DNA of 64,000 nucleotides from a bacterium (GTDB lineage Bacteria > 4484-113 > JAFGCY01): positions 62,001 through 126,000 of the forward strand of contig JADZFO010000002.1 in NCBI GenBank assembly GCA_020849855.1. The letters are read 5' to 3'. Shown here piece by piece: positions 1,154 to 53,509 of this stretch. Numbering within the stretch: position 1 is the first letter of the stretch; the number at the start of each line of letters is the position of its first letter. The notes below the pieces were generated by a model. It did not search any database, was not told the DNA's origin, and saw nothing but the letters and a program-made list of their open reading frames with translations. The position numbers and the translations under genes are program-made.

Positions 1154-1159
1154 TCAGAT

Positions 1160-2345: not shown

Positions 2346-2360
2346 GCTAAAGGCTGAGTA

Positions 2361-4499: not shown

Positions 4500-4531
4500 A
4501 TCTGGCCGGAAATCCTAATCTGGCCGGAAAT
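4500..4531. repeat. Tandem 14-bp direct repeat ATCTGGCCGGAAAT
   Basis: Two perfect copies (4500-4513 and 4518-4531) lie 18 bp apart in the divergent spacer between the lipoprotein gene and ruvX. The spacing and position suggest a transcription factor site, but no matching regulator is known to me. Confidence 0.5.
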
Positions 4532-4567
4532 TTTCACCAAATCGGCATCGGCTAGATTGGAGGCACT

Positions 4568-5035
4568 TTGCGCTGGATTGGCTTCGACCCGGGAGAGACA
4601 CGCTGCGGCATCGCCGTCTGTGATCCAGCGCAGATTCTCGCCAGCCCGGTGGCCGTCCTTTCCGTGCAACCGCGCCAGACCCTGGCCGAGCGCATCAGGC
4701 AGGCCCTGGCGGCTTATGGTGCTCCCTTTGGCCCGGACGAGTACAGTGGCATGGTCTGCGGGCTGGCTCTGGACCAGCGGGGCCGGCAGGGGGAGTCTGC
4801 CCGGCGAGGCATGGAACTTGGTCAGGCGGTGCATGATGCCCTCAAGACCGAGGTGCCGAAGCTTGAGTTGCATTTCGTGGATGAGCGCTTCAGCACGGCC
4901 GGCATGCAGCGCCAGCTGAAGGACGCAGGCAGCCGTGGCAAACAGCGCAGCGCTGAGATTGATGCCTGGGCCGCCGCCTCGATCCTTGACGATTTTCTGC
5001 AGCAGCGCCGTCGGGCCGCGGAAGACCCTACTTGA
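4568..5035 (+). CDS. ruvX: RuvX/YqgF family pre-16S rRNA processing nuclease
   Basis: This is a small RNase H-fold nuclease of the YqgF family, involved in 16S rRNA 5'-end maturation and also called putative Holliday junction resolvase. Motifs are FDPGETRCGIAV (first catalytic Asp), VCGLAL with a following Gly-rich turn, FVDERFSTA (catalytic Glu) and EIDAWAAASILDDFL (final acidic residue). The 155-residue length fits. The start is TTG at 4568, chosen because GGAGG (4559-4563) is ideally spaced and because translation then begins directly at the first beta strand (RWIGFDPG). Its last 8 bp overlap the stop of the convergent hydrolase gene. Confidence 0.9.
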   Translation: MRWIGFDPGETRCGIAVCDPAQILASPVAVLSVQPRQTLAERIRQALAAYGAPFGPDEYSGMVCGLALDQRGRQGESARRGMELGQAVHDALKTEVPKLELHFVDERFSTAGMQRQLKDAGSRGKQRSAEIDAWAAASILDDFLQQRRRAAEDPT

Positions 5036-6302: not shown

Positions 6303-6354
6303 TCCGGCACCTGCATGAGAGCCGCGCCGCCTGCGCAGAGTTTCACGCCTGAGC

Positions 6355-7704: not shown

Positions 7705-7711
7705 CTTAGCG

Positions 7712-7717
7712 ATGATA
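7712..7717 (-). promoter_or_regulatory. TATCAT -10-like box, 7 nt before the ndh ATG
   Basis: The box lies in the 16-bp gap between the SRPBCC stop and ndh, seven bases before the start codon. No Shine-Dalgarno sequence is seen. It may give a separate leaderless ndh transcript. Confidence 0.35.
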
Positions 7718-7720
7718 GCG

Positions 7721-8203
7721 TCATTCTGTGCGCAGGGACTCGAGGGTCACGCGATGTCGGTAATCAAACATCCGCTCAAGGCGCTTGCGGATGTAAGGCC
7801 CGGCCACCAGCTGTCCGGGCCAGCCGAGCGGCAGGCGGTAGCTGATCTCATCTATCAGCATCGATGTTGTCTCTGTTTCAGGCACGAAGCGGTGCCGGTG
7901 CAGCCAGTAGCTGAAGGGACCGCGAAGCTGGATGTCGCTGAACTCGCGCCCGCTTTGCACATCCTGCAGGCGGCTGATCCAGCGCAGGGACAGCGGCCCA
8001 AGCCTGGGGACCAGGACGATGGTTACGCCATCTTCCAGCAGCCCGGGCTGCTCCTGACCCTGGGCGCTGCGCCAGCTCTGGATAGACACGGATTCCCAGG
8101 GCGGTATCAGGCTTGCAAGGGCTCCCGGCCGCGCATGCCAGTCCCAGAGCCGCTGGGCCGCTACCGGCATGCTGCTGCTTTTGGCGAAAGTCTGCACAGG
8201 CAA
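7721..8203 (-). CDS. SRPBCC family protein
   Basis: A 160-residue START/Bet v1-like (SRPBCC) domain protein. The family signature is clear at the N terminus, where WDWHARPGALASLIPPWE matches the SRPBCC domain often fused to or next to TIGR01777-type epimerases. Later conserved parts are FSDIQLRGPFSYWLHRHRF and MLIDEISYRLPLG. The ligand is unknown; related domains bind hydrophobic molecules. The start is TTG at 8203, needed to include the first strand TFAKSSSMPV. It lies 16 bp upstream of ndh and is probably in the same operon. Confidence 0.75.
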   Translation of the reverse strand: MPVQTFAKSSSMPVAAQRLWDWHARPGALASLIPPWESVSIQSWRSAQGQEQPGLLEDGVTIVLVPRLGPLSLRWISRLQDVQSGREFSDIQLRGPFSYWLHRHRFVPETETTSMLIDEISYRLPLGWPGQLVAGPYIRKRLERMFDYRHRVTLESLRTE

Positions 8204-8267
8204 GACTACCCCGGTTGCCTGCCGGCCAGTGTATGTTCGCCCGCGCGCAGCGCGAAATCGCCTCGGC

Positions 8268-8273
8268 TAAACT
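8268..8273 (+). promoter_or_regulatory. TAAACT -10 box, 6 nt before the arginase ATG
   Basis: TAAACT, then six bases (AGCCGC), then the ATG at 8280. There is no Shine-Dalgarno sequence, suggesting a leaderless mRNA. The box is embedded in a short dyad GGCTAAACTAGCC. Confidence 0.55.
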
Positions 8274-8279
8274 AGCCGC

Positions 8280-9275
8280 ATGGGAAAGGCCGACCGCGCC
8301 CTGCGCTCACTTGCCTCGCAGATCAATGGCAGCGTTCCGCGTGCACGCAAGAGCATCAACATCCTGGGCTTCCCGATGGACCTTGGCGCCGGCCGCCGCG
8401 GCGTGGACATGGGGCCTTCGGCGCTGCGCATTGCCGGCCTGGGGCAGCGCCTGCGCGAGCTGGGCTATGACGTGGATGACCAGGGCGACATACTGGTGCG
8501 CTGGCCGCGCGACCGGATGGAGCACGAGAAGGGCGAGCACCAGCCCGGCCAGCTGCACTTCCTGCCAGAGATTGCGGAAAGCTGCGGCTTCCTGGCCTCA
8601 TCCGTGCAGAGCATCCTTGAGGACGGCGGCTTCCCTCTGGTGCTGGGCGGCGACCACTCCATGAGCATCGGCACGCTGGCGGGTGTGGCGTCGCACTGCC
8701 GGGTGGCCGGCAAGCGCCTGGGCGTGCTGTGGGTGGATGCCCACGCGGATATCAACACCCCGCAGACCAGCCCCAGCGGCAATATCCACGGCATGCCGGT
8801 GGGCGTCTGCCTGGGCATGGGCGCGGAGGAGCTGACCAACATTGGCGGCTTCAGCCCCAAGCTGATGCCCGAGAACATCGTCTATATCGGCCTGCGCAGC
8901 GTGGACAGCGGCGAGAAGTCCGCCATCGCCACCCTTGGTATCGAGGCCTATCCGATGCCTGAGATTGACAAGCACGGCCTTTACAGCATTCTGCAGAAGG
9001 CCCTGCCGGCGCTGCTGGACCGCGTTGACCATCTGCACGTCAGCTTCGATCTCGACTCCATCGACCCGGACATCGCGCCGGGCGTCGGCACGCCGGTCAA
9101 GGGCGGTCTGTCCTACCGCGAGGCCCACCTGCTGATGGAATGGCTGCACGAAAGCGGCAGGGTGGACAGCTTTGAGGTCGCCGAAGTGAATCCCGTGCTT
9201 GACGAGCGCAATCGCAGTGCGGAGCTGGCGGTGGAGCTGCTGTGCAGCGTGATGGGTCTGAAGATCCTGCTCTAG
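8280..9275 (+). CDS. rocF: Arginase
   Basis: A ureohydrolase of 331 residues that hydrolyses L-arginine to ornithine and urea with a dinuclear Mn centre. Metal ligands are in LVLGGDHSMS (H126), VDAHADINTP (D153, H155, D157) and SFDLDSIDPD. The loop TSPSGNIHGMPVG is the substrate-binding signature of arginases rather than agmatinases, which supports the specific name. The C terminus FEVAEVNPVLDERN also fits. There is an N-terminal extension of about 20 residues with basic character and a 30-residue insertion rich in charged residues (EHEKGEHQPG). It stands alone between divergent neighbours. Confidence 0.88.
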   Translation: MGKADRALRSLASQINGSVPRARKSINILGFPMDLGAGRRGVDMGPSALRIAGLGQRLRELGYDVDDQGDILVRWPRDRMEHEKGEHQPGQLHFLPEIAESCGFLASSVQSILEDGGFPLVLGGDHSMSIGTLAGVASHCRVAGKRLGVLWVDAHADINTPQTSPSGNIHGMPVGVCLGMGAEELTNIGGFSPKLMPENIVYIGLRSVDSGEKSAIATLGIEAYPMPEIDKHGLYSILQKALPALLDRVDHLHVSFDLDSIDPDIAPGVGTPVKGGLSYREAHLLMEWLHESGRVDSFEVAEVNPVLDERNRSAELAVELLCSVMGLKILL

Positions 9276-9310
9276 CCCGGTTAACCCTTTCATCAAAACG
9301 CAACCTCCAT

Positions 9311-9336
9311 GTATTCGTGCTCACACGCACGAATAC
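9311..9336. repeat. Perfect 10-bp inverted repeat upstream of the subtilase gene
   Basis: GTATTCGTGC (9311-9320) and GCACGAATAC (9327-9336) are separated by TCACAC. There is no T-tract, so it is unlikely to terminate the arginase gene efficiently. It may be an operator or a 5'-UTR hairpin for the following gene. Confidence 0.55.
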
Positions 9337-9413
9337 GGATGCGCGGTTATTCTCTGGCGTCTTCTACTGGTCTGCACGGATGCGGACGAAAAACAGTAAG
9401 ACAGGAGTTTGGA

Positions 9414-12400
9414 ATGGGAGCAGGAGGCTTCACCCGGCCAGCCGCGAGGCTGGCCAGCTTAGTCACAACCGTGCTGGCGCTTCTCGCGTTCGCCGCCGGT
9501 TGCGGGGCCAGCGGCAGCGGCGGTCTGGGCGAATACAGCCCGGCCGGCAACCAGCCCGCTGGCGGGCGAGTGCTGCGCCGAGGCGAGATTCCCTCGCCGG
9601 TCGCCGACCGCGAGATCGCCGCCGTTCTGGCTGAGCTGGAAAACAGCCCGGCGCCGGAAGGTGTGGACAGCGCCCTGTGGCAGGATCTGCGCAGCGCTCT
9701 GGCCGGCCAGCTGGGCAGCCGCGGCGTCAGCCGTGTGGCCTCAGCGGCCCCGGGCAGCGCGGCGAGCCAGGTGACACAGTTCACTCCGCTGGCCGCCGAT
9801 GGGAGCATTCGCTTCCTCTGGCAGGAAGCCAACCAGGGCGACTACGACCATAACGGCATCGTGAGCGTCCAGGACCTGGTGCAGGTCGGCCTCTTCTTTG
9901 GCCTGGATAACGCTGCTTCCAACTGGTCCGAGGCCCGCGCGGCCGACGGCAATGGCGATGGCCTGGTTAATGTCCAGGACGTCACGCCGATTGGCTCCAA
10001 CTTCCTGAACGCGATTGCCGGCTACAACGTGTACCGCGCCCTGGGTCTTGGTTCGGCCCCCGAACTGGTGGCCAGCCTGCCGCGCTCGGCGGCCCTGGAA
10101 GCGAATGCCGAGGTCATGATCTATGACTTCACCGACAGCAGCCTGCCCGAGGGAGCTGCGGACTTTGTTTATGAAGTCCGGCCCTATGCCCCTGGCGGGG
10201 CAGCCGAGGAAGGCATCTGTTCCTATCCTTACGAAGTCAGCCTTGGGGGCGGCTTCGGCGAGCACCTGCAGCCGGCCTCGGCGGCGCTGGTGGATGAGAA
10301 CGGCACGGGCGTGGCGGTGCTGCAGGATGAGCTGCTTCTGAACTATGTGCAGCAGCCCAGCCAGGACGAGCTCTTCGGCCTGGTCTACAGCGACCTGGAC
10401 GCCAAACTGCTGGGCCAGATCCCCGGCAACCTGACCTATCGAATCGGCTTTGAGAACGCCAATGCGGACATGGGCATGCTTAAGTCGCAGGTCCAGGCAG
10501 CCGCAGGTGCAGCCTGCAGCGTGGACTTTGACTTCCTGGCTGAGCCCTCTGCCTTGAGCACTGCCCCCGGGCGCGAGGCGAGCAAGACCTACAGCGACCC
10601 GCGCCGCGCCGAGCTTTGGGGCCTGGACGCGGTCAACGCCGACAACGCCTGGGATGTCTCAGAGGGCAGCGGCGTTGTTGTCGCGGTTATCGATACCGGT
10701 GTTGAAACGAGCCATGAGGACCTGCTGGGCCAGACCGTGACCGGCGCGCGCTTTGGCGGCGTTGAGCCCTGGTCTGACGACAGCAACGGCCACGGCACGC
10801 ATGTCGCGGGCACCATCGCGGCGGCGGGTGATAACGGCCTTGGCATCGTCGGCCTGGCGCCGGCAGCGAAGATCATGCCGCTGCGCGCCGGTTCTGTGAT
10901 CAGCGGCTCCTGGCGCTTCCCGGCCAGCGACCTGACCTCCAGCATCAACTACGCGGTGAACAACGGCGCCCAGGTGATCAACATGAGCCTCGGCGGCGTG
11001 GGCAGCACCATGGGCAGCGCCTTTGAAGCGGCGCTGGCCAACGCGGAGGCTGCCGGGGTGGTGGTTTGTGTCGCGGCGGGTAACTCCAACATGGACGCCG
11101 GCGGCTATGTGCCGGCGCTGTATCCCACGGTGCTCTGTGTCGGCGCGATCGGCCCGGACATGAGCCGCGCCGGCTACAGCAACTATGGCTCAGTGGTGGA
11201 TGTCTGCGCGCCCGGCGGCGACATTGTCAGCAGCTACAGCGAGGGCATCCTCAGCAGCGTGCCGACGACAAACAGCAGTTACAGCTTCTATCAGGGCACT
11301 TCGATGGCCTGCCCGCATGCCGCGGCCTTCTGCGCGCTGCTGCTGGCGGCTAACCCGGACCTCAGCCCTGCGGATGTCAGGCTCAAGGCGGCCGAGACTG
11401 GTCGGGTGTTGCCCGAAAGCGACCAGATCGGCCCGCTTATCGACGCCGAGGCGGCGCTGGCGGCGCTGGATTCCTTCGGTGTCAGTGGCTCAGTCAAGCG
11501 CAGTGACGGCCTTGGTATCAGTGGCGTCACTGTCACTCTCAGCGACGGGGTTGTTGAATTCACAGCTACCACAACTTCCAGTGGCTCCTTCTCGCTAAGC
11601 GGCGCTCCGACCGGGACTTACGTCCTCTCGCCGCTGCGTGCCGGCTGGCGCTTCGAGCCGGAAAGCATGGAAGTGGTGCTGAGTGGCGCCAGCTACAGCG
11701 GGGCGGACTTTGAGGCCACGCAGGTTGGCATCTTCGAGACAGAGAACAACGACAATGCCGCGCAGGCCAATGCCCTGCCAGCCTTCCCCTTTACCTCAGG
11801 TGACTGGGGCGGCAGCCTTGGTTCCGGCACGGACTATGTGGCCACCGACGGCGACGCGGTGGACATCTTCAGCTTCACCCTGGATAACCCGGCGCGGGTT
11901 TACTTCGAGCTGGGCTTCGATGGAACGCGCGCCAACCTGGATCTGCGTCTCCTGGGTACAAACGGCACCACCGTTGTGGCGAGCTCCGCGCTTAAGAGCG
12001 GCAGCACTGAAGCGCTGAGCTACAGCCTGTCGCAGCCGGGCACCTACTATGTAAGCTGCGTCAAGGTAAGCGGTTACTCGGACTACACCCTTGCCGGTGA
12101 TGCCAAGGAGACGCACTCGCTCAGCGGCAGGATCCTGAACAGCAGCGGCGCGGCTGTGGCGAACGTGGTGCTGAACCTGAACTCTGAGAGCGACAGCTTC
12201 AGCGTCAAGACCGGCGCCAGTGGAAGCTACAGCTTCAGCGGCGTACCCGACGGCAGCTATGTGCTGGTCCCGAAGCTGGCCCCCCGGAGCTTCCTGCCCG
12301 AATCAAGTGATGTGGTCATCGCCGGCGAAGACCTGACGGACCAGGACTTCACGGCCGTCGGACCCTTCACGGTGACGGGACGCGTGACTAACCCGGCCGG

Positions 12401-28404: not shown

Positions 28405-30402
28405 ATGAGACCGAGTGGTAGAGGCAGGTTCAATCTGACCCTTACCGTGCTGGCCTTCCCTGTTTTCGGACTGCTCATGGGCGGCTGTGCCGGTGTGCTG
28501 TCCGGCGACGGAGATGACAATAATGGACCGGCTGCCAATCAGCCGCCTGTCATCATCGGAGATACCATCACGGTGAACAACACCGCACCGGAAACCGGCG
28601 ACAGCATCACCCTGTCGATCACAACCGAGGATCCGGAAAACCAGGCCCTGACCTACGCCTGGGATGATGGCAACGCCGGAGCCGGCGACTTCACCGGCAG
28701 CGGCGCATCCGTCTTTTGGAACACCAGCGTGGCGGGCGCCTATGTCATCAGCGTCACTGTCACCGACAGCGAGGGCGGAACTGATACGGAGACCATATCT
28801 ATGACCGTCACCGAGGCTGTGGTTGTGGTTCCCAACGACCCGCCGAGCTTCACCGACACCGGCATCACCAAGGACGTGACGGCTCCTGTGGCAGGGCAGA
28901 AGGTCATCTTCAGCGCCACGGCCGCCGACCCCAATGGTGACCCCCTGTCCTTCATCTGGGAGGACAATACCGGCCAGGAGAACTTCTCCGATCCGGCCGT
29001 GGGCGCCGATGGCAAGGCCAAGATCTGGTGGACCGCGCCATCCGCGGGCACCTTCACCATCACCGCGATCGCCAATGACGGCCGCAGCGGTTCCCGCGTG
29101 ATCAGCGCGACCGTCGCTGTGGATGCCGGCGTGAATGTCGGGGCCTTCCCCAGCTCCTTTAACTATGTCGGCGCGGAGCACTGCGCCAACTGCCACGAGG
29201 ACATTTACGACGCCGAGCAGATGACCGGCCATGCCCACCGCGAGGACAACATGCAGGCCGCCGGCCTTGGCCGTCTGGAATCCTGCCGTGGCTGCCACAA
29301 CGTCGGCTGGCAGGATGGCGGCTACATCGACTACGAGCTCACCCCGCAGTTCGCCAATGTGCAGTGCGAAAGCTGCCACGGCACCGGCGTCGGCCACCCG
29401 GCCAACGGCCCGCTGCCGACCAACTTCGATCCTGCCCTGTCCTGCGGCAAGTGCCACATCGGCAGCCACCACCCGACCTACACCGAATGGCAGACCTCGG
29501 GCCACGCGACCTTCGATATCTCGGAGACCGCCGAGGAAGAGAACATCATCGAAGCGGCCTGTATCAAGTGCCACAACGGTGAGTGGTTCGTGAAGATCCA
29601 GATCAACGGCGAGGCGCAGCCGGAAGAAGACCTGCCGCACGGCAGTGGTTCCCACATCTCCTGTGCCACCTGCCACGACCCGCACGATGCGAAGTACGGC
29701 AGCCAGCTGCGTGTCGACCCCGAAGGCTCGGTTACGATCCCCTTCGACGACACAGTGGTCAGCGCCGGCGCGGCCAACACCTGCCTGATGTGCCACAACG
29801 GCCGTCGTACCCGCAAGAACATGAACGACACCATCGCCAAGGGCGGCCGCGGCTTCCACGGCAACAGCCAGGGCCCGATGCTCTACGGTATTGGTGGCTT
29901 CGAGTTCGAAGGTGTCACCTATGACAAGGAGCACCCGCACAACACCTGGAACCAGGAGAAGTGCATCACCTGTCACATGTACACCGAAGAGTATGTGAGC
30001 GAGGAAGACCCGGCGATCACCGGCCACTCCTTCGCCCCGCAGTTCGAGTCCTGCCTGGCCTGCCACACCTTCGGCTCCGCCGAGGACATGGAGGCCTACG
30101 TCGAGGAGTACCAGACGGAGACCGACGCGATGCTGGCGGAGTTCGAAGCCGCCTGGCCCGCCGCCTGGAAGACCACGGATGAAGAAGGCGTGACCCTGAA
30201 CAACCGTCCGGACACCAATGACCCGCCGGAGTTCGACGGTCCTCCGACCGAAGACCCGATCGGCGACCAGTATCGCCAGGCGTGGTGGGACTACTACTAC
30301 GTCAAGGCGGATGCCAGCCGCGGCGTCCACAACCCGTCCTACGCCCGCAGCCTGCTGCAGTCTGCGATCAACAAACTCAACGAGCTGAACGCTCAGCAGT
30401 AA
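28405..30402 (+). CDS. Nine-heme c-type cytochrome with N-terminal Ig/PKD-like domains
   Basis: A 665-residue exported multiheme cytochrome. The signal peptide ends near LLMGGC, a lipobox-like site, so it may be a lipoprotein. Two Ig/PKD-like domains (about 45-245, with QPPVIIGD and YVISVTVTDSEGG) precede the haem region, which starts at C260. CxxCH sites are CANCH, CRGCH, CESCH, CGKCH, CIKCH, CATCH, CLMCH, CITCH and CLACH (nine). The C-terminal 130 residues contain no haem site and look helical (AWWDYYYVKADASRGVHNPSYA). Start is supported by AGGAGG. The architecture resembles surface cytochromes of metal-reducing and uncultured bacteria. It is followed by a NapC/NrfH-type cytochrome gene. 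Confidence 0.88.
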   Translation: MRPSGRGRFNLTLTVLAFPVFGLLMGGCAGVLSGDGDDNNGPAANQPPVIIGDTITVNNTAPETGDSITLSITTEDPENQALTYAWDDGNAGAGDFTGSGASVFWNTSVAGAYVISVTVTDSEGGTDTETISMTVTEAVVVVPNDPPSFTDTGITKDVTAPVAGQKVIFSATAADPNGDPLSFIWEDNTGQENFSDPAVGADGKAKIWWTAPSAGTFTITAIANDGRSGSRVISATVAVDAGVNVGAFPSSFNYVGAEHCANCHEDIYDAEQMTGHAHREDNMQAAGLGRLESCRGCHNVGWQDGGYIDYELTPQFANVQCESCHGTGVGHPANGPLPTNFDPALSCGKCHIGSHHPTYTEWQTSGHATFDISETAEEENIIEAACIKCHNGEWFVKIQINGEAQPEEDLPHGSGSHISCATCHDPHDAKYGSQLRVDPEGSVTIPFDDTVVSAGAANTCLMCHNGRRTRKNMNDTIAKGGRGFHGNSQGPMLYGIGGFEFEGVTYDKEHPHNTWNQEKCITCHMYTEEYVSEEDPAITGHSFAPQFESCLACHTFGSAEDMEAYVEEYQTETDAMLAEFEAAWPAAWKTTDEEGVTLNNRPDTNDPPEFDGPPTEDPIGDQYRQAWWDYYYVKADASRGVHNPSYARSLLQSAINKLNELNAQQ

Positions 30403-30411
30403 GCAAGTCAA

Positions 30412-30439
30412 ACGGGGGGCGGCACAGGCCGCCCCCCGT
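30412..30439 (+). repeat. 12-bp hairpin between the two cytochrome genes
   Basis: ACGGGGGGCGGC pairs perfectly with GCCGCCCCCCGT over an ACAG loop, immediately after the first stop codon. No T-tract follows. It may set different mRNA levels of the two cytochromes (stabiliser or attenuator). The rest of the 240-bp spacer holds a further hairpin GGGTTCC/GGAACCC (30460-30478) and no ORF. Confidence 0.55.
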
Positions 30440-30642
30440 CCATCTCCCTTCGGGGAGCCCGGGTTCCGACTGGAACCCACTCCGCTGATAGCGCCCCTGC
30501 AGCTGCTTCCCTGCGGGCCGGAGTTTCGGCCAGGGCGCAATGAAGGCGGCGGGCGCTCATCGGATCGCCGCCGCACTTCCCCGAGCCGCCGGGGTTCGGC
30601 CACGGCCGCGCCTGAAGCGAGACGGCTCAAACGAGGAATGCT

Positions 30643-31995
30643 ATGCGTAAGCTGATCCGCAAGCACTGGTTGCTCAGTATCCTGGTGGTGCTGGTGATCT
30701 TCTTCACGGGGTCCTGGGGGGCGCTGGCCTACACCAATAATCCCGCCTTCTGCACCAAGTGCCATGTGATGGACCCCTACTGCAACACCTGGGCCAGCTC
30801 CACGCACAGCAAGGTGGCCTGCGTCGACTGCCACTATGCCCCCGGAGACAAGTACAAGATCTGGGTCAAGGCCAAGTCCCTCAACCAGGTCGCGGCCTAC
30901 TGGACCGGCCACTACGACACCAAGTTCTATGCGGACATCAAGGACGCCTCCTGCATGGTCTGCCACAAGCTGGAAGACCTGAACAAGCCGGTCAAGTACA
31001 ACGGCCACGTCAACTTCGACCACTCCAAGCACTATGGCAAGGATGACCGCGGCATCAAGCTGCTGTGCACCAGTTGCCATAGCCACTCCGAAAAGGACCA
31101 GCACTTCAGCATCAACAAGAACGCCTGCTATCTGTGCCACTTCCGTGGCGAGATGAGCGCCAGTGTGCCCAAGAAGCAGGAGTTCTGCACCAAGTGCCAC
31201 GACGTCCCTGAAAAGGACATTGAGATCTCCGGCCAGACCTACTCCCATGCCAGCTATGTCGAGCAGGGGGTGGACTGCCAGCGCTGCCACATCGACGCGG
31301 TGGAAGGCCAGGGTGATGTCGAGACCCGCTCCTGCGAGGTCTGCCATGACGACCCGAAGCTGCCGGACACCGCAGCGGAGCGCGAGGAGCTGCACCGCAC
31401 CCACGTAACAGAGCACAAGGTCGACTGCTTCCGCTGCCACACCGACATCACCCACGGCGTGCGCCCGACGGGCAAGCAGATCGTCTTCTCCTGCAACCAG
31501 TGCCACAGCCAGCCGCACCTTGGCCCGCAGGAGCTATATGCCGGCAAGGGCGGCCGCGGCGTCGACGAGATGCCCTCGGCCATGTACAAGGCCCAGGTCG
31601 ACTGCGTCGGCTGCCACCTCGAGGACCACACCTTCGGCGCCGAGAGCACGATGAAGGGCGCGGTCATGCGCCCCAGCGTGAAGGCCTGCGTCGACTGCCA
31701 TGGCGACCTTGGCAGCGAGATGTACAACATGTGGACCCAGATGCTGGCTGACTCCATCGCCGCAGCGACAAAGGCGGTGGCCGCGGCCCAGAGCAAGGTG
31801 GACACCGCCGCTGAGGGCACGCCCGGCCTGGCCGAGGCCCGCAAGCTGCTGGAGGATGCGCAGTACAACCTGGACTTCGTCCGCTTTGGCAAGGGCATCC
31901 ACAACGTTGGCTACTCCACGGCCCTGCTGGACAAGTCGATCGAGTTCGCCAACCAGGCCCTCGAGAAGCTGGGGGCAGCGCCGGCGGCTGAGTAA
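30643..31995 (+). CDS. NapC/NrfH-type membrane-anchored cytochrome c with twelve CxxCH motifs
   Basis: A 450-residue protein with an uncleaved N-terminal membrane helix (LLSILVVLVIFFTGSWGAL) followed at once by the NapC/NirT signature CTKCHVMDPYCNTWASS and VACVDCHYAPG. Such proteins oxidise quinol at the periplasmic face and pass electrons on. Typical NapC/NrfH/CymA proteins have four or five haems; this one has twelve sites: CTKCH, CVDCH, CMVCH, CTSCH, CYLCH, CTKCH, CQRCH, CEVCH, CFRCH, CNQCH, CVGCH and CVDCH. A C-terminal helical region (about 365-450, Ala-rich) has no haem site. RBS GAGGAA is present. It lies 240 bp after the nine-heme cytochrome and is probably its partner. Confidence 0.9.
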   Translation: MRKLIRKHWLLSILVVLVIFFTGSWGALAYTNNPAFCTKCHVMDPYCNTWASSTHSKVACVDCHYAPGDKYKIWVKAKSLNQVAAYWTGHYDTKFYADIKDASCMVCHKLEDLNKPVKYNGHVNFDHSKHYGKDDRGIKLLCTSCHSHSEKDQHFSINKNACYLCHFRGEMSASVPKKQEFCTKCHDVPEKDIEISGQTYSHASYVEQGVDCQRCHIDAVEGQGDVETRSCEVCHDDPKLPDTAAEREELHRTHVTEHKVDCFRCHTDITHGVRPTGKQIVFSCNQCHSQPHLGPQELYAGKGGRGVDEMPSAMYKAQVDCVGCHLEDHTFGAESTMKGAVMRPSVKACVDCHGDLGSEMYNMWTQMLADSIAAATKAVAAAQSKVDTAAEGTPGLAEARKLLEDAQYNLDFVRFGKGIHNVGYSTALLDKSIEFANQALEKLGAAPAAE

Positions 31996-46457: not shown

Positions 46458-46697
46458 ATGAATGTCGTCTTTACAATTGTCCTGATCGCGGTGATTGCCG
46501 TCAGCGGCATCATGACTTACATCACCCTGTCGCTCAATACCAAGAGCGACGGCATCGGCGCGGCCATCACGGGCGCCTCGGACAGCTATCGCGGTGCTGT
46601 CGGTGTCGAAGAGCAGAAGCGCAAGCTGCTGGGTAACCTCGGCTACACCTTTGGCGTCCTCTGCCTGCTCTATACCATCTTCGAGACCTACCTCTAG
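46458..46697 (+). CDS. secG: SecG-like preprotein translocase subunit
   Basis: A 79-residue protein with two membrane helices (VFTIVLIAVIAVSGIMTYIT and NLGYTFGVLCLLYTIF) separated by a short loop GIGAAITGASDSYRG, which resembles the SecG loop (Gly-rich GxGGAF or similar followed by Ser). Length and topology match SecG, the small SecYEG subunit that assists protein export. Without alignment the call is moderate; another two-helix membrane protein is possible. It precedes a CAP-domain gene by about 70 bp. Confidence 0.6.
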   Translation: MNVVFTIVLIAVIAVSGIMTYITLSLNTKSDGIGAAITGASDSYRGAVGVEEQKRKLLGNLGYTFGVLCLLYTIFETYL

Positions 46698-46767
46698 AGC
46701 GCGGGCTGCCGCAGTGGCTCAGCTCCCCGGTCGCGGCGCTTTGAATCACCCGGGCTCCTGCTGCGTC

Positions 46768-47718
46768 ATGTACTGCAGCATGTCCCTCCGGCCAGCTTAC
46801 TTCCCTGCCTCGCTGCAACGCGCCATTGCATGCCTGCTTGCCGGCGCGCTGGCGCTTCTGCTTGCCGCCGCCCCGGCCCATGCCGCGGTTGACCTCAACG
46901 AACCTGACAACTACCGCCTGGCCCAGGACATCATGCTGCGCCTGGTCAACGAGGCCCGCGTGCGCGAAGGGGTGGCCCGGGTGGGCTTCGACGCCCAGGC
47001 GGCGCAGGCGGCCAAAGCGCACGCGGATGACATGCTGGCCCATGACTACTTCAGCCACTGGGGCCTCGACGGCCGCAAGCCTACGCGGCGCTGGAACCTG
47101 ATGGGCTGCTATGACGCGGTGGCGGAGAACATCTATTACAAGAAGGGTGCGCTGGGCGACATCGACACGATGCTGGAGGACGCCATGCAGACCCTGCTGG
47201 CCAGCCCCGGGCACCGCAAGACCATGCTGAACCCTGACTATACCGACGTCGGGATCGGCTTTGCCATGAGCGAGTCGGGGCGCGAGCTGCTGGTGGCGCA
47301 GGAGTTTGTCACTCGCCTGGGCGGGGCCTACTACTGCCCGCTGTATGCGCGTCTCGGGGAGAAGATCGAGCTGATCGGGCGCTATGACAGCGCGCTTTTC
47401 GAGCTGGAGGCGGTTGTGCTTGGCTACGAAGAACTTCCTTCACCCAAGAAGAAACTGTGGCTTGCCAAAGTGAGATCTTATGCAGATGCAGAAGTTCGCT
47501 ACGCAGCGCTTACTCCCGTTGGCTCAGGAAGAATCTATTCTGAATATCCAACTTCACCGGAGGTGGAGCTGGACAAGGTTGGCGGCTATTTCAAATGCTC
47601 GCCGCGCCTGGACTACAAGAAGAAGCCCGGCACCTATTACCTGTTTGTGTGGCTGCGGGCCCGCGAGATGGACAAGCCCTTTTTGGCCGCTGTGGCAACG
47701 GTTGAAGTTGAAAACTGA
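46768..47718 (+). CDS. Exported CAP (SCP/PR-1) domain protein
   Basis: A 316-residue exported protein. The signal peptide contains ACLLAGALALLLAAAPAHA. The CAP domain (about 40-165) has AKAHADDMLAHDYFSHW, AENIYYKKGAL and the C-terminal LLASPGHRKTMLNPDYTDV, the expected His/Glu cavity residues. The remaining 150 residues are beta-rich and unassigned. CAP proteins bind lipids or have protease-like roles in bacteria, often uncertain. ATG 46768 or 46780 could be the start; neither has a good RBS. The stretch 47440-47570 has noticeably more A+T codons than the rest of the gene. Confidence 0.8.
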   Translation: MYCSMSLRPAYFPASLQRAIACLLAGALALLLAAAPAHAAVDLNEPDNYRLAQDIMLRLVNEARVREGVARVGFDAQAAQAAKAHADDMLAHDYFSHWGLDGRKPTRRWNLMGCYDAVAENIYYKKGALGDIDTMLEDAMQTLLASPGHRKTMLNPDYTDVGIGFAMSESGRELLVAQEFVTRLGGAYYCPLYARLGEKIELIGRYDSALFELEAVVLGYEELPSPKKKLWLAKVRSYADAEVRYAALTPVGSGRIYSEYPTSPEVELDKVGGYFKCSPRLDYKKKPGTYYLFVWLRAREMDKPFLAAVATVEVEN

Positions 47719-47920: not shown

Positions 47921-49129
47921 ATGTTCGCGGTGGCAAAGCAGCTAATGGCTGCTGCAGGTGCTCTGGTCTTCATGGCGACCAGCGGCTACGTCAACGCGCA
48001 GTTCGACAAGGTCGAAGGCGTTGAAGCTCCGGATGATGTGACAGGTGCTGACTGCACCATGTGTCACGGCGATGCCGCGACCAAATTCGAGTTCCACCAT
48101 CAGCCGGCCTTTGAAGGCAAGTGCACAACCTGCCACCTCGAAACCGGCACGGGCGGCCACGGCGGCCTGACCATGCCGGACCGGCAGCTGTGCCTGCAGT
48201 GCCACCAGGACCAGGAGCAGCACTATCCCCTGGCCACCTGCTGGACCTCCGCCTGCCACAGCGATATCCACGGTTCCAATGTTGACGCCACCCTGAACCC
48301 CAGCCGCCAGGAAGCCTATCCTGGTTTCTTTGAAGCCACCACCGGCGCCGAGTACACCGGCTCCGAGGCCTGCCTGACCTGCCACACCGACCAGTGCAGC
48401 TCCTGGAAGGAGTCGATGCACAGCCTCAGCGATACCGACTGGCAGAAGGCCCCCAACATGCGCGGCTGCGAGAGCTGCCACGGCCCGGGCGGCAACCACT
48501 GGGGCCGCAAGGCCGGCATCGGATCCTTCGCCTATGCCAGCGATGCCGAATCGGACGCGGTCTGCCTGACCTGCCACAAGGACGAGACCTTCGCCCCCGA
48601 GTATCAGCGCAACACCCATGTAAAGACCGGCGTCGGCTGTGTCGATTGCCATGATGTGCATTCACAGCTTGAGCGTCACAACCTGCGGGCCAGCGCCAAT
48701 GAGCTTTGCCTGACCTGCCACCAGAACCAGCGCCTGGAATTCGCCAAGTTCAGCCACCACCCGGTGGACGACAGCGATGCCCGCACGGGCCTGCAGTGCG
48801 TCGAGTGCCATAACCCGCACGGCGGCGAGGGCCGCGCAATGCTGGTGGCCAATCAGGATGAGCTGTGCTTCGTCTGCCACGTGGACAAGCAGGGGCCCTT
48901 TATCTATGCCCACGCTGGCTATGAGGCCGGCCTGGGCCAGGGCTGCAGCACCTGCCATGACTCCCATGGCAGCAACAGCCCGAACCTGCTGAAGATGAGC
49001 GGACGCGGCCTGTGCATCCAGTGCCACACCGACCGGGTGCAGCACTTCCCGGCGCAGACCTGCTGGAGCACCGGCTGCCACAGCGATCATCACGGCAGCA
49101 ACACCGACTATTTCTTCTTTGACAACTAG
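47921..49129 (+). CDS. MtrA/DmsE-like multiheme cytochrome c (12 CxxCH plus 2 CX4CH)
   Basis: A 402-residue periplasmic cytochrome with a signal peptide ending SGYVNA. Twelve CxxCH sites are visible (CTMCH, CTTCH, CLQCH, CLTCH, CESCH, CLTCH, CVDCH, CLTCH, CVECH, CFVCH, CSTCH, CIQCH). Two further CX4CH sites (CWTSACH and CWSTGCH, each followed by an HGSN motif) may bind haem in the manner known from cytochrome c3 families. The arrangement, GSEACLTCHTDQ and the pairing with an outer-membrane barrel gene 15 bp downstream identify it as the MtrA/DmsE/PioA-like partner that threads electrons through the porin. MtrA normally has ten haems, so this form is larger. Confidence 0.9.
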   Translation: MFAVAKQLMAAAGALVFMATSGYVNAQFDKVEGVEAPDDVTGADCTMCHGDAATKFEFHHQPAFEGKCTTCHLETGTGGHGGLTMPDRQLCLQCHQDQEQHYPLATCWTSACHSDIHGSNVDATLNPSRQEAYPGFFEATTGAEYTGSEACLTCHTDQCSSWKESMHSLSDTDWQKAPNMRGCESCHGPGGNHWGRKAGIGSFAYASDAESDAVCLTCHKDETFAPEYQRNTHVKTGVGCVDCHDVHSQLERHNLRASANELCLTCHQNQRLEFAKFSHHPVDDSDARTGLQCVECHNPHGGEGRAMLVANQDELCFVCHVDKQGPFIYAHAGYEAGLGQGCSTCHDSHGSNSPNLLKMSGRGLCIQCHTDRVQHFPAQTCWSTGCHSDHHGSNTDYFFFDN

Positions 49130-49144
49130 GTTGGGGGAAGGAAA

Positions 49145-51286
49145 ATGAGCCGAGGCCATGCATTTTGGGCGATGCTGCTGCTGACGGGCCTGCTGGGCCT
49201 GAGCAGTGCTTCAGTCGCCGCCGAGGAGCAGCAGCCGGCTGCGGATCCCGCGCCGTCATCCAGCTCAAACGAGGACTTCTACAAGCCCTTTGGCAGTGGC
49301 GGGGACAGCGCAGGCAGCGCTGAGGTCGCGCCGGCGGCACAGCCCGCTGCCGCGGACAGTGCTGCCGCGGAGCAGGAAAGCGCCGCTGAGCCTGCCGCCG
49401 GCGAAGCAGAGGCTGCCGCCAGCGGCGAGGCCGGAGAGCAGGATTCCGCTGACCCCTCGGGCTTCTACAACAGCTTTATCCCCGGTGGCCAGGCCGGCTC
49501 CGCTGATCCGGGCTCCCCGGACGGCACGCAGGCTGAAGCCCCGGCCGAGGCTGCGACTGAAGCCGCAGCGGAAGACAGCTCGGTGGCCATTGAGAACACC
49601 GCCGCCCAGGGCAGCGAAAGCTGGGGCGACGACTGCTGCAAGCCCGCGCCGAACCTGGACCATGAGCACGTCTTTGCCCAGGGCATCTGCGCGGACTGCG
49701 GCTGCAAGGCCGAAGGCACCGGCAACTGGATCAGCCTTGCCGGTGTATACGCCAACACCGACGGCAACATGGACTCCGTGGACCAGTACGGCTACCTGCC
49801 CCGCGAGTGGTACAGCTCGGGCAAGCTGCACTGGGGGGACAGCTATTTCTCCCGTAACCGCTTTGAGCTGCGCTGGGATGATGTCAACCGCCTCAGCGGG
49901 CGCGCCTGGAGCCGCCTGACCCTGTGGCCCATGACCCTGGAAGGCGACAGCTACATCATGCGCGGCAGCGCCTGGGACTCCTTTGGCAACACCCCGCTGC
50001 TGACCCAGCAGGAGGTCGCGACCGACAGCCTGCGCCTGCGCTGGCACCGCGGCGAGTGGGACAACATGCTGCTGGAGTTCCGCCAGTCGGATGTGGACAA
50101 GAAGGGCATCACCCCGCTGGGTGACTACTCCTACCGCCGCCTGGCCTATCAGTACAACTTCGATATCGGCTGCGATGTGAAGGGCCAGTTCCGCCAGACC
50201 GGCACCTCTTTTGACGCGCCGGCGAGCGGCATCACCAACGGCGAGATTGACAGCAGCATGCTGAAGCTGGACGCCCAGCTTAGTGACGAGATTTCAGCCT
50301 ACGGCAAGCTCAGCGCCTCTGCCTATGAGTATGAGCAGATGCCGGATCCCGAGTTCGCCAGCCAGGACTACACCCTGGGCCTGCGCTATGCGCCGGACTG
50401 CGAATGGGAGTTCAGCGCCGAGTACCGCGCGAAGGAAAACGCGGACGACAACGTGGTTTCCAGCCATGTTGAGAACTTCAGCGAGTATGGCCTGTCACTG
50501 GCCTACGCGGCCGCCTGCGGCGGGCTTTACGAGGCCGGCATCCGGCACCGCGACCTGGACTACGCCAAGCTGAACATGCAGGACGCCTTTGTCTTTGGCC
50601 TGCTGCGCAGCGGCTCCATCGTCCGTCCGGTGGACGTTGCCTCGGCGACGACCATCCTGACGCCGAAGTATGACGAGGCCTGGTTCAACATGCGCCAGCA
50701 GCTGGGCGAAGACTTCTTCTTCACTACCCGCGTGGACTACAGCCAGGGCGACATGCCTTCAAGCGAGCTGACGGCCGCCGGCAGCAGCAGCCTGTTCTAT
50801 GACAAGCGCCTGAGCCGGACCCACGGCCTGAGCTATGTCTATGACAACAACAACCAGTTTGACTTCGCCCTGCACAGCAGCGAGCTGAGCAATGACGGCC
50901 GGGCCAGCGACTTCGATGAAAACTACTTCGAGACAGTCTGGACCCATGCCATGGATGACGGCCGCTTCTTCTCCCTGGCCTACCGCGGCAGCGAGGCCGA
51001 GCTGGCCGTCCCTGGCAACACGGATGGCTATACGACGGACAACAGCGGTTACGTGGCGAGCTACAGCAATGACGATGAGGATGTCAGCTATGCGCTGCGC
51101 CTGGGCCTGGACGACGGCAGCGGAGCTGAGGAGTACACCCAGACCAGCGCCGGGGCCGATTTCAAGTTCAAGTGCCTTGGCCCGGTGGGTCTGCATCTGG
51201 AGTGGTATGACCGCAGTTACGGCAACTTTCCGGGCCTGAGCGCCTCGGCCATGACCGTCGCTGTGGACTACAAACTGGAGTTCTAA
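49145..51286 (+). CDS. MtrB/PioB-like outer-membrane beta-barrel (porin-cytochrome complex)
   Basis: A 713-residue outer-membrane barrel. It has a signal peptide (LLLTGLLGLSSASVAA), then a long Ala/Glu/Ser-rich low-complexity region (about 25-155), then a Cys cluster (DDCCKPAP and GICADCGCKAEG) and about 520 residues of amphipathic strands ending in MTVAVDYKLEF with a terminal Phe, the usual barrel-assembly signal. The CxxCxC element recalls the CXXC near the N terminus of Shewanella MtrB. Placed directly after the MtrA-like gene and followed by a tetraheme cytochrome, it should form the sheath of a transmembrane electron conduit. Primary sequence similarity to MtrB is low by eye, so the call rests on topology and context. 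Confidence 0.8.
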   Translation: MSRGHAFWAMLLLTGLLGLSSASVAAEEQQPAADPAPSSSSNEDFYKPFGSGGDSAGSAEVAPAAQPAAADSAAAEQESAAEPAAGEAEAAASGEAGEQDSADPSGFYNSFIPGGQAGSADPGSPDGTQAEAPAEAATEAAAEDSSVAIENTAAQGSESWGDDCCKPAPNLDHEHVFAQGICADCGCKAEGTGNWISLAGVYANTDGNMDSVDQYGYLPREWYSSGKLHWGDSYFSRNRFELRWDDVNRLSGRAWSRLTLWPMTLEGDSYIMRGSAWDSFGNTPLLTQQEVATDSLRLRWHRGEWDNMLLEFRQSDVDKKGITPLGDYSYRRLAYQYNFDIGCDVKGQFRQTGTSFDAPASGITNGEIDSSMLKLDAQLSDEISAYGKLSASAYEYEQMPDPEFASQDYTLGLRYAPDCEWEFSAEYRAKENADDNVVSSHVENFSEYGLSLAYAAACGGLYEAGIRHRDLDYAKLNMQDAFVFGLLRSGSIVRPVDVASATTILTPKYDEAWFNMRQQLGEDFFFTTRVDYSQGDMPSSELTAAGSSSLFYDKRLSRTHGLSYVYDNNNQFDFALHSSELSNDGRASDFDENYFETVWTHAMDDGRFFSLAYRGSEAELAVPGNTDGYTTDNSGYVASYSNDDEDVSYALRLGLDDGSGAEEYTQTSAGADFKFKCLGPVGLHLEWYDRSYGNFPGLSASAMTVAVDYKLEF

Positions 51287-51328
51287 CTATCCGCTGTTGC
51301 GCTTGAAGCGCTGTGACAATCAAAATGG

Positions 51329-51368
51329 GATATATACGATAAGTTCCGCCCATTTTGAACGATATAAT
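51329..51368 (+). promoter_or_regulatory. Control region of the tetraheme cytochrome gene
   Basis: Contains GATAT-ATAC-GATA (51329-51341), similar to the GATAT-N4-GATA in the other two cytochrome control regions, two ACGATA hexamers 22 bp apart (51336-51341 and 51358-51363 approx.), and TATAAT (51363-51368) as -10, overlapping the second hexamer. Confidence 0.45.
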
Positions 51369-51410
51369 CTTGGGAGGCGTCATGCAGATGAGGCCTTCTG
51401 GAGGTGTGTT

Positions 51411-51902
51411 ATGAGCAAAGTGTTTGCCTGGGCGATACCCGTCCTGCTCGTCCTGGGTTTCGCATTCAGTCCGGTTGATGCTGACGAGAACAAGTTCGTG
51501 GGTGACCCTGAGAAGAACTGCAAGCTCTGCCATAAGGAGCAGGTGGCTGCCTGGAGCAAGTGGCCGATGGCCAAGGCCTGGGACCGCCTGAACGACAAGC
51601 AGAAGAAGGATGAGAAGTGCATCGGCTGCCATGTGACCGGCTATAAGAAGCCGGGCGGGTTTACCAGCTTCGACAAGACCCCCAAGCTGGTGGGCATCCA
51701 GTGCGAGTCCTGCCATGGCCCGGCCGGCGACCACATGAAGGTCCCGATGAACGACAAGGCCAAGAAGAAGAGCACGATGGCTACGCCCAACGAGGCCAAC
51801 TGCAAGACCTGCCACAAGAAGGAAGGCAACCCGAACTTCAAGGACTTCAAGTACAGCGAGGCCGTCAAGAAGCTGGCTGACCACAAGCCCAAGAAGAAGT
51901 AG
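51411..51902 (+). CDS. Tetraheme cytochrome c (c554-like)
   Basis: A 163-residue exported cytochrome with signal peptide (VFAWAIPVLLVLGFAFSPVDA) and four CxxCH sites: CKLCH, CIGCH, CESCH and CKTCH. The order KNCKLCHKEQVAAWSKWPMAKAW and ECIGCHVTGY plus CESCHGPAGDH matches the cytochrome c554/NapC-like tetraheme families. The C terminus is very Lys-rich (KKKSTMATP and KPKKK). RBS GGAGGTG fixes the start. It follows the MtrB-like gene by 125 bp and has its own promoter; it could be a periplasmic electron shuttle to the MtrA-like protein. Confidence 0.87.
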   Translation: MSKVFAWAIPVLLVLGFAFSPVDADENKFVGDPEKNCKLCHKEQVAAWSKWPMAKAWDRLNDKQKKDEKCIGCHVTGYKKPGGFTSFDKTPKLVGIQCESCHGPAGDHMKVPMNDKAKKKSTMATPNEANCKTCHKKEGNPNFKDFKYSEAVKKLADHKPKKK

Positions 51903-51932: not shown

Positions 51933-51962
51933 AAAAGCCACGGCCCCGGCCGTGGCTTTTTG
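51933..51962. terminator. Strong bidirectional terminator
   Basis: AAAAGCCACGGCC pairs with GGCCGTGGCTTTT, followed by TTTTT on the plus strand; the A-run on the left gives U-run for the convergent multicopper oxidase gene. Confidence 0.85.
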
Positions 51963-51985: not shown

Positions 51986-53509
51986 TCAGGGCAGCACACG
52001 AAACTCGCCCATCATCCCCAGCTCCTGATGGTGCAGGATATGGCAGTGATAGGGCCAGAGGCCGGGATGACCGTCATAGACAACCGCCAGCTCATAGATC
52101 TGGTCGCCATACTCGGTGGTTGGCAGGTTGACTGTGTCCTTCCAGGCGCGGTAAGGGTAGGGCTCGCCGTCGATCCTGAGGATCTGGAAGCGGAAGCCGT
52201 GGAGGTGCAGGGGGTGGTCCATCGGGGTGTGGTTGTTGAAGCGCCAGATCTCCGTTGTCCCAAGCCGGGGCTCAAAGACCGGCACATCCGGGAATACCTT
52301 GCCGTTGATCCTGAATTCCACCCCCAGCTGGCCGCCGCCGTGGCCGCCGCTGCTTGCGCCGTGCCCGCCGGGGTCCATGGCGACCGGGTCACTGGGCACA
52401 ATTGAGTTCAGGATGAAGCTGCGGGTGGCGACCGGCTCTCCGGGCGGCGGGATGCTGGCCAGGCTGGCTGGCAGGGCGGGCGGCTCTCCAGCGCTCTCTT
52501 CGCTGTAGCTCAGGAAGAGCAGCGGGGTCTGCGGGTCCGGCACGTATGAGGGCACGAAGCGCAGGTGCGGGTAAACCAGGCTGTCCAGCGAGGCCGCGCC
52601 GCCCGAGGCCGGGGTACTGACCACGATCTCGTTACGCTCGCCGGGCCCCATCACGATTTCGCTCATTTCGACCGGGGCCTCGATCAGACCGCCGTCAGTT
52701 CCCACCAGATGGAAGCTCTGCCCCGGCAGGCCGAGCTTGTAGACCCGCGCTGCGGCTGCGTCGAGGATGTACCAGCGCTCAAGGCTGCCACGCGCCAGCT
52801 CCAGCTGCGGCCGGATCTGGCCGTTGACCAGCAGGGTGTTACCGGTGGTGCCCAGTGAGTGCTCGATCTCGTTGTGCGCGCGCGTGGAGGCCGGGACGAC
52901 CTGCCCGGCGCTGTCCAGCTCGATGTCACTCAGCACCAGCACGCGGCTGGGCAGATCGGCCAGCGGGTCGGCGGGGTCGCGCACGAGGATCGTGCCATAG
53001 AGCCCGCGGCTGAACTGGTCGTCGCCGGCGAAGTGCGGGTGGTACCAGTAGAGCCCGGCATCCGGCAGGGTGAAGCGGTACTCAAAGCTGTCGCCGGGCG
53101 GCACGGGGTCCTGGCTGGTGTGCGCGCCGTCCATGGCCTGCGGCAGGCGGATGCCGTGCCAGTGGACCATCGTTTCCATGGGCAGCTCGTTGCGGAAGTG
53201 GACCAGCAACTCGTCGCCCACATTGGCCTCAATCTGCGGCCCGGGGAGCTGGCCGTTGTAGGTCCAGACCTCGCTGGGCCGGCCGGCGATGAACTCATAC
53301 TGCGAGACCTGCGCGGTCAAGTTGATCTCGATCACGCGCGGATCCGGGCTGAGGTCCTTAGCCAGCGCCGGCTGTCGCAGAGCCTGGCCGGCCACACCGG
53401 TGCGGATGAACTCAGGCAGCGGCGCACCGCCACGGTTGCTGGTCGCGCAGGCGCTGCAGACCAGCAGCAGGCAGGCGCTTGCCAGCAGGCCGGATTGTAA
53501 GTGAGTCAC
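51986..53509 (-). CDS. Multicopper oxidase lipoprotein
   Basis: A 507-residue three-cupredoxin-domain oxidase with lipobox CSAC at the N terminus (GTG start). All copper motifs are present: HWHG (116-119), WYHPH (155-159), HPLHLHGF and the type 1/3 motif HCHILHHQELGMM with axial Met. These oxidise a metal, phenol or cuprous ion while reducing oxygen to water. A His/Gly-rich stretch (GGHGASSGGHGGG) precedes domain 3 and could bind Cu. It lies opposite the tetraheme cytochrome but is not in its operon. Physiological substrate unknown; CueO/CopA-like copper detoxification and Mn/Fe oxidation are both possible. Confidence 0.92.
   Translation of the reverse strand: MTHLQSGLLASACLLLVCSACATSNRGGAPLPEFIRTGVAGQALRQPALAKDLSPDPRVIEINLTAQVSQYEFIAGRPSEVWTYNGQLPGPQIEANVGDELLVHFRNELPMETMVHWHGIRLPQAMDGAHTSQDPVPPGDSFEYRFTLPDAGLYWYHPHFAGDDQFSRGLYGTILVRDPADPLADLPSRVLVLSDIELDSAGQVVPASTRAHNEIEHSLGTTGNTLLVNGQIRPQLELARGSLERWYILDAAAARVYKLGLPGQSFHLVGTDGGLIEAPVEMSEIVMGPGERNEIVVSTPASGGAASLDSLVYPHLRFVPSYVPDPQTPLLFLSYSEESAGEPPALPASLASIPPPGEPVATRSFILNSIVPSDPVAMDPGGHGASSGGHGGGQLGVEFRINGKVFPDVPVFEPRLGTTEIWRFNNHTPMDHPLHLHGFRFQILRIDGEPYPYRAWKDTVNLPTTEYGDQIYELAVVYDGHPGLWPYHCHILHHQELGMMGEFRVLP

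What the first reader, a model, noticed from the sequence alone, without database searches (positions are those of the whole stretch)
47921..51902. Porin-cytochrome conduit with an enlarged, unusual MtrA-like cytochrome
An MtrA/DmsE-like cytochrome, an MtrB-like barrel and a tetraheme cytochrome lie in order. The MtrA-like protein has 12 CxxCH plus two CX4CH sites, each followed by HGSN, making up to 14 haems instead of 10. CX4CH sites are known from cytochrome c3-type proteins but unusual in MtrA. This may be a divergent electron nanowire system.
Basis: partly seen in the sequence, partly recalled or inferred. Interest (0 to 1): 0.75.

Follow-up and report, generated by a model that had tools for sequence, protein, structure and literature searches.

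The report
Lengthened fourteen-haem MtrA-type electron wire
This stretch encodes a protein wire of the kind bacteria use to push electrons out through their outer membrane, but here the wire has been made longer by copying its own last four iron-haem links onto its inner end, a variant found only in one small family of uncultured bacteria in the genomes sampled.

Summary
ORF 47921-49129 (402 aa) has 12 CXXCH and two CX4CH motifs, each CX4CH followed by HGSN; a barrel and a tetrahaem gene follow. The protein is an MtrA/DmsE-family cytochrome. Residues 147-402 are the normal decahaem core: the second CX4CH is haem 10, where most relatives have CXXCH+HGSN. Residues 45-122 are an added four-haem module, a copy of the protein's own last four haems. 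All four genomes of this family carry the 14-haem form, with all motifs and 15 further histidines invariant, beside a separate 10-haem paralogue. No other genome sampled (about 200 with DmsE-type homologues) shows this module; one genome of another phylum reached 18 haems independently by copying haems 1-8. The barrel does not match MtrB/PioB (PF11854), though canonical neighbours do; it belongs to a divergent group. Likely partners lie in the same window: a nonahaem lipoprotein (28405-30402), whose orthologue adjoins the 14-haem gene in two relatives, and a NapC-type 12-haem cytochrome (30643-31995). Best reading: an extracellular electron-transfer route with an MtrA wire lengthened into the periplasm. 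New variant of a known kind; haem loading, barrel fold and direction are untested.

The parts
47921..49129 (+). 14-haem MtrA/DmsE-type cytochrome: signal peptide (res 1-26), added four-haem module (res 45-122), linker (123-146), decahaem core (147-402)
   Evidence: motif count; TIGR03508/PF09699; alignments
48053..48286 (+). added N-terminal four-haem module (CTMCH, CTTCH, CLQCH, CWTSACH..HGSN), a copy of the C-terminal module
   Evidence: local alignment score 196 against null 82 +/- 13, max 132 of 1000; N-modules form one clade nested among CX4CH C-modules
48866..49108 (+). C-terminal four-haem module (CFVCH, CSTCH, CIQCH, CWSTGCH..HGSN), template of the copy; its CX4CH is haem 10 of the MtrA core
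49145..51286 (+). MtrB-like outer-membrane barrel candidate of a divergent group (no PF11854 match), Ala/Glu-rich N-terminal stretch before the barrel part, C-terminus VDYKLEF
   Evidence: no family hit; hhalign to the class's other MtrA-linked barrels 98.5% and 96.7%; starts 15 bases after the cytochrome gene
51411..51902 (+). tetrahaem C554-type periplasmic cytochrome (163 aa), likely start ATG 51411
   Evidence: PF13435; start and signal peptide; a like gene follows the barrel in G002 and G003
51933..51960 (.). perfect 12-pair hairpin with T run, probable terminator closing the cluster before the convergent multicopper oxidase gene
28405..30402 (+). nonahaem lipoprotein cytochrome with PKD/Ig-like domains, likely extracellular partner
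   Evidence: Pfam; 61% identical to the gene directly upstream of the 14-haem gene in G002; co-occurrence
30643..31995 (+). 12-haem inner-membrane cytochrome with NapC/NrfH-type N-terminus, likely quinol-side entry
   Evidence: PF03264 1e-16, TIGR03153 partial; present in all four genomes with the 14-haem form

Best explanation
An outer-membrane electron conduit of the MtrA/barrel type whose MtrA carries four extra haems. Inferred route: menaquinol -> NapC-type 12-haem cytochrome (30643-31995) -> optionally the C554-type tetrahaem protein -> the added four-haem module, which extends the wire into the periplasm -> decahaem core inside the barrel -> nonahaem lipoprotein on the cell surface (28405-30402) -> mineral, humic matter or another cell. 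Shown here: family, motif number, internal duplication, conservation, gene linkage. Inferred: haem attachment at all 14 sites, barrel fold, orientation, direction of flow. The extra haems arose once, in the ancestor of this family, by copying the last four haems of the core to the N-terminus. In solved MtrCAB the MtrA N-terminus points into the periplasm with haem A1 about 20 A below the membrane (PMC7198977), so the module should lengthen the wire on that side, by roughly 35-40 A if haem spacing is as in MtrA (my estimate).
For: DmsE family over cut-off and MtrA of 6r2q as best PDB match. Module copy: score 196 against a null of 82 +/- 13. In four orthologues from three genera all 14 motifs are kept, the N-module is as conserved as the core (0.54-0.85 against 0.54-0.80 identity), and 15 non-motif histidines are invariant, four of them (60, 80, 101, 117) in the module: enough for 14 bis-His haems. 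The haem-10 CX4CH sits at an invariant haem position, and CX3-4CH motifs have been shown to bind haem covalently (cited in PMC4245776). Cytochrome-barrel gene order in G000-G003, with the nonahaem gene directly upstream in G002 and G003; a homologous nonahaem gene lies upstream of mtrA in G381 and G015 too. NapC-type and nonahaem genes occur in all four genomes with the 14-haem form and are absent from the four class members without DmsE.
Against: The barrel matches no known MtrB family and its structure could not be predicted (pLDDT 27; only two rows could be used); the cytochrome model failed as well. No experimental data. In the window the nonahaem and NapC-type genes are 16-18 kb from the conduit genes, so that linkage rests on relatives. 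The core alone scores below the TIGR03508 cut-off.
Confidence: 0.75

Rival explanations
1. Ordinary MtrA conduit in which the N-terminal module is a tethered periplasmic shuttle or electron-storage domain, joined by the linker (123-146), not an in-line part of the wire.
For: Conserved linker LNPSRQExYPGF between module and core; the module ends with the same HGSN signature that ends the wire in MtrA, as if it were a closed unit; in MtrA the N-terminal half is the mobile part (PMC7198977).
Against: The linker is only about 24 residues and at least as conserved as the haem domains (0.67-0.83), which suggests a fixed joint. Mature protein has 26.9 residues per haem, as in compact wires.
Confidence: 0.3
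2. The conduit works inward: electron uptake from Fe(II), Mn(II) or a cathode-like donor, as in MtoAB/PioAB, perhaps with the neighbouring multicopper oxidase (51986-53509).
For: MtrA-type wires can run in both directions (PMC10734462); many MtrAB clusters without mtrC belong to Fe(II) oxidisers (PMC4245776); a CueO-like oxidase gene is next door.
Against: The oxidase is convergent, behind a strong hairpin terminator, and not kept beside the conduit in G002 or G003. A surface nonahaem lipoprotein is linked, unlike Mto/Pio.
Confidence: 0.25
3. The CX4CH sites do not carry haem: a 12-haem protein with two free cysteine pairs.
For: CX4CH is rarer than CXXCH and some maturation systems may handle it poorly (general knowledge, not tested).
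Against: The C-terminal CX4CH is at the invariant haem-10 position and is shared by all ten DmsE-type proteins of the class and by G381/G385; the following HGS with its invariant histidine is kept.
Confidence: 0.07
4. A dedicated extracellular reductase conduit (DmsE-like, as for DMSO or iodate) rather than metal, mineral or electrode respiration.
For: DmsE gives the family its name and shares the fold.
Against: No molybdopterin reductase was recognised among the ORFs around the cluster; the linked outer protein is a nonahaem cytochrome.
Confidence: 0.1

Closest known systems
MtrA of MtrCAB (Shewanella; PDB 6R2Q)
   Same: Decahaem core order, conserved distal histidines, terminal CH-x3-HGSN, signal peptide, gene next to a barrel gene.
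   Different: Four extra N-terminal haems; haem 10 motif CX4CH instead of CXXCH; barrel not of the MtrB/PioB family; outer partner not OmcA/MtrC.
PioA/MtoA
   Same: DmsE-family wire; Rhodopseudomonas PioA also has an extended N-terminus.
   Different: The PioA extension (residues 1-270) has no haem motif (PMC10654088); here the extension is itself a four-haem module.
Pcc periplasmic cytochromes with 12-14 motifs (Anaeromyxobacter, Kuenenia; IALB_1838 of Ignavibacterium album, 400 aa, 14 motifs)
   Same: Enlarged periplasmic cytochrome beside a porin gene (PMC4245776).
   Different: Reported as Pcc class, which that paper calls phylogenetically unrelated to Mtr; sequences not available here, so not compared directly.
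PCC3 / PCC4 clusters
   Same: Long periplasmic multihaem wires of about 26 residues per haem, proposed to reach across the periplasm (PMC5566968, PMC10734462).
   Different: PCC3 periplasmic cytochromes have 21-27 haems and the cluster holds a five-helix inner-membrane protein; none is seen here, and this cytochrome is DmsE-type.
GSU2203 (OmcK)/GSU2204 of Geobacter
   Same: NF041028 (GSU2203 family) scores 203.1 bits on the cytochrome; two of ten related barrels touch NF041027 (GSU2204 family) weakly, best E 7e-4.
   Different: Far below the curated cut-off (203 against 325); the window barrel itself has no NF041027 match.

Membership tests
DmsE/MtrA family (TIGR03508) | Whole-protein score over the curated cut-off | tested here: met
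   202.2 bits against 192.2; core alone 175.5 in the genome search, so the copied module lifts it over the line
DmsE/MtrA family (TIGR03508) | Conserved haem positions 1-10 and terminal CH-x3-HGS | tested here: met
   15-row alignment with invariant Cys/His columns
DmsE/MtrA family (TIGR03508) | Ten haems | tested here: not met
   14 motifs; the ten-haem core is present within, so it is filed as a variant, not a plain member
DmsE/MtrA family (TIGR03508) | CXXCH at haem 10 | tested here: not met
   CX4CH in this class and in G381/G385; CXXCH in the 26 other loci L034-L059 counted
DmsE/MtrA family (TIGR03508) | Covalent haem at every motif, bis-His ligation | not testable with these tools
   only the ligand supply was checked: 14 motif and 15 other invariant His
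MtrB/PioB barrel family (PF11854) | Pfam profile match | tested here: not met
   no match for the window barrel and nine relatives; barrels next to canonical mtrA score 1e-53 to 1e-119
MtrB/PioB barrel family (PF11854) | Profile-profile similarity to canonical MtrB | tested here: not met
   hhalign probability 3.6%
MtrB/PioB barrel family (PF11854) | Large (26-strand) barrel fold | tested here: inconclusive
   structure model failed, pLDDT 27; 27 amphipathic 9-mers against 19.6 +/- 2.5 shuffled and C-terminus VDYKLEF, a crude test
Mtr-type PCC with OmcA/MtrC outer cytochrome | OmcA/MtrC decahaem (TIGR03507) gene linked | tested here: not met
   linked outer candidate is a nonahaem PKD lipoprotein without TIGR03507 match at 1e-5, though the PF22113 MtrC/MtrF domain gives 44 bits
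PCC3/PCC4 | Five-helix inner-membrane protein in the cluster | tested here: inconclusive
   no such gene noticed among ORFs between 46.6 and 53.5 kb; the published protein family itself was not searched

The most novel reading that the evidence does not exclude
The module that forms the outward end of MtrA, the part that hands electrons to the surface cytochrome, was copied to the inward end, giving a wire with the same docking end on both sides. Together with the separate 18-haem form (G385, haems 1-8 copied) this shows that MtrA wires have been lengthened more than once by module copying to bridge more of the periplasm, making soluble carriers less necessary.
Probability: 0.4. Interest if true: 0.68.

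Novelty: new variant of a known kind. Interest (0 to 1): 0.52.

Why it matters
How electrons cross the periplasm between the inner membrane and an MtrA wire that ends about 20 A below the outer membrane is an open point in extracellular electron transfer. A natural MtrA with four haems added at exactly that end, conserved in a family that also keeps the ten-haem form, offers a direct comparison, and a second lengthening by another route shows the change is not a one-off. It also gives a modular rule (copy four or eight haems) for building longer protein wires, and shows that searches that require PF11854 barrels or count only CXXCH motifs will miss or mis-count these clusters.

Tried and rejected
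Structure prediction of barrel and cytochrome: pLDDT 27, useless, because only window and the search for related loci rows may be used; so no fold search was run. Barrel against PDB sequences: nothing. Membership of the multicopper oxidase (51986-53509) in the system: rejected, convergent, behind a terminator, not kept beside the cluster in G002/G003. The idea that CX4CH+HGSN comes from cytochrome c3: rejected, the copy source is the protein's own C-terminus and HGSN is a family signature. The idea that other long DmsE-type frames hide extra haems: nine with long open frames checked (L122-L130), all 10 haems; G050 and G245 are other multihaem proteins; only G385 is truly longer. Plasmid records: only decahaem-region matches. 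A DNA pattern for CX4CH-HGSN was mis-spaced by me and tells nothing. Naming the organism: not achieved; the collection shows a small class of ten genomes with no other phylum-mates.
Full report
Observation. The 402-aa protein at 47921-49129 has 12 CXXCH and 2 CX4CH motifs, both CX4CH followed by HGSN. It starts with a signal peptide (MFAVAKQLMAAAGALVFMATSGYVNA, seen in the sequence). The barrel candidate starts 15 bases after its stop; a tetrahaem C554-type gene follows (likely ATG 51411), and a perfect 12-pair hairpin at 51933-51960 probably closes the unit.

What the cytochrome is. It scores 202.2 bits for TIGR03508 (DmsE family, cut-off 192.2) and 203.1 for NF041028 (GSU2203 family, cut-off 325); the best solved match is 6r2q_A, MtrA of MtrCAB, E 4e-31, residues 115-372. 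In a 15-row alignment the last ten haem sites line up column by column with decahaem relatives. The second CX4CH is therefore haem 10 with two extra residues between the cysteines, and the HGS after it is invariant in that alignment. Of 27 loci from other families examined, 26 (L034-L059) have CXXCH at the last site and one (G381, L060) has CX4CH. All ten DmsE-type proteins of this class have CX4CH. In the core tree the CX4CH proteins form one clade, 100/98. CX3CH at haem 1 turns up in several other lineages, so odd spacings are not rare in the family as such.

The extra haems. Residues 45-122 align with 316-396, the last four haems of the same protein, with score 196; shuffling all residues except C and H gives 82 +/- 13, maximum 132 in 1000. 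No other part of the core scores near this. In a tree of modules the four N-modules form one clade (100/99) inside the CX4CH C-module group (the exact sister is uncertain, 84/48, and the branch is long). So the module was copied once, before the genera of this family split. It is under the same constraint as the core: pairwise identity 0.54-0.85 against 0.54-0.80, and all motifs plus histidines 60, 80, 101 and 117 are kept. With the eleven invariant non-motif histidines in the core this suffices for 14 bis-His haems.

Distribution. All four genomes of the family (three genera) have the 14-haem gene and a separate 10-haem paralogue; the window's own paralogue is on contig C15 (L002/L031). Two class members of another family (G007, G009) have only the 10-haem form. 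Outside, searches over about 1,400 genomes gave roughly 200 genomes with DmsE-type homologues (the sets overlap and not every row is printed); in the searches with the 14-haem profile every listed match begins at profile position 122 or later, that is, after the module's first haems and for nearly all after the module. One exception of a different kind: G385, in the phylum of G381, has an 18-haem protein whose extra eight haems are a copy of haems 1-8 of its own core (score 412). MtrA wires have thus been lengthened at least twice, both times at the N-terminus and both in the CX4CH clade.

The barrel. No Pfam or NCBIfam match, while barrels next to canonical decahaem genes score 1e-53 to 1e-119 for PF11854. 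hhalign gives 3.6% against canonical MtrB but 98.5% (E 2e-15) and 96.7% (E 3e-10) against the barrels beside the 10-haem genes of the same class, and only 20% against the G381/G385 barrels. So this is a diverged barrel group that travels with CX4CH-type MtrA in this class. The C-terminus VDYKLEF, with alternating hydrophobic residues and a final F, fits the usual outer-membrane assembly signal (general knowledge); amphipathic stretches number 27 against 19.6 +/- 2.5 in shuffles. The fold is not shown.

The partners. In G002 (and, cut by a contig end, in G003) a nonahaem lipoprotein gene lies directly upstream of the 14-haem gene. Its orthologue in the window is 28405-30402, 61% identical over 646 residues, with PKD/Ig-like domains before the haem part. 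A homologue without the long PKD part lies upstream of mtrA in G381 (31%) and in G015 (27%), two further lineages. So nonahaem lipoprotein - MtrA - barrel is a recurring gene order. Next to it in the window, 30643-31995 encodes a 12-haem protein with a NapC/NrfH-type membrane N-terminus, present in all four genomes with the 14-haem form and in G009. Both are absent, at E 1e-10, from the four class members lacking DmsE.

Mechanism, shown and inferred. Shown by sequence: family, motif number, copy event, conservation, linkage. Inferred: quinol-side NapC-type entry, periplasmic transfer directly or through the C554-type protein, passage along 14 haems through the barrel, exit by the nonahaem lipoprotein. 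The N-terminal position of the module means extension on the periplasmic side, since in MtrCAB the MtrA N-terminus projects there with haem A1 about 20 A below the membrane (PMC7198977). Direction of flow is not settled by sequence; the surface lipoprotein and the NapC-type protein fit export.

Known or new. An earlier survey states that all identified MtrA/MtoA/PioA have ten haems and reports 12-14 motifs only in the Pcc class, which it calls unrelated to Mtr (PMC4245776); PioA's N-terminal extension has no haem motif (PMC10654088); PCC3 wires are longer still but another family (PMC5566968, PMC10734462). I found no report of a 14-haem DmsE-type protein in the papers searched, which are open-access only. 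I rate it a new variant of a known kind.

Noticed in passing
L117:1571-3109 (G385, contig C267): 18-haem MtrA-type protein; its extra eight haems copy haems 1-8 of its own core; next to it a six-haem MtrA-like ORF (853-1425).
   Followed up: partly
window 28405-31995: Nonahaem PKD lipoprotein gene followed by a 12-haem NapC-type inner-membrane cytochrome gene; not in the finding but probably part of the same pathway.
   Followed up: yes
L031:9503-12451 (own genome, contig C15): Second conduit in the same genome: 10-haem CX4CH-type MtrA (357 aa) and its own barrel (625 aa).
   Followed up: partly
L039, L044, L047, L048, L050, L053: CX3CH at haem 1 of decahaem DmsE-type proteins in several families; motif counters that look for CXXCH only will call them nine-haem.
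   Followed up: no
window 51986-53509: CueO-like multicopper oxidase lipoprotein gene, convergent with the cluster.
   Followed up: partly
window 46594-47718: CAP-domain secreted protein gene just upstream of the conduit genes; not seen beside the conduit in the relatives.
   Followed up: no
L005 (Phycisphaeraceae record), 987-11167: Five neighbouring ORFs with 11 to 15 haem motifs each, several with odd-spaced motifs at their ends.
   Followed up: no
L004:4124-6678: Cytochrome c biogenesis genes (ResB and CcsA type by look, not tested) directly upstream of and divergent from the 14-haem gene in this relative.
   Followed up: no
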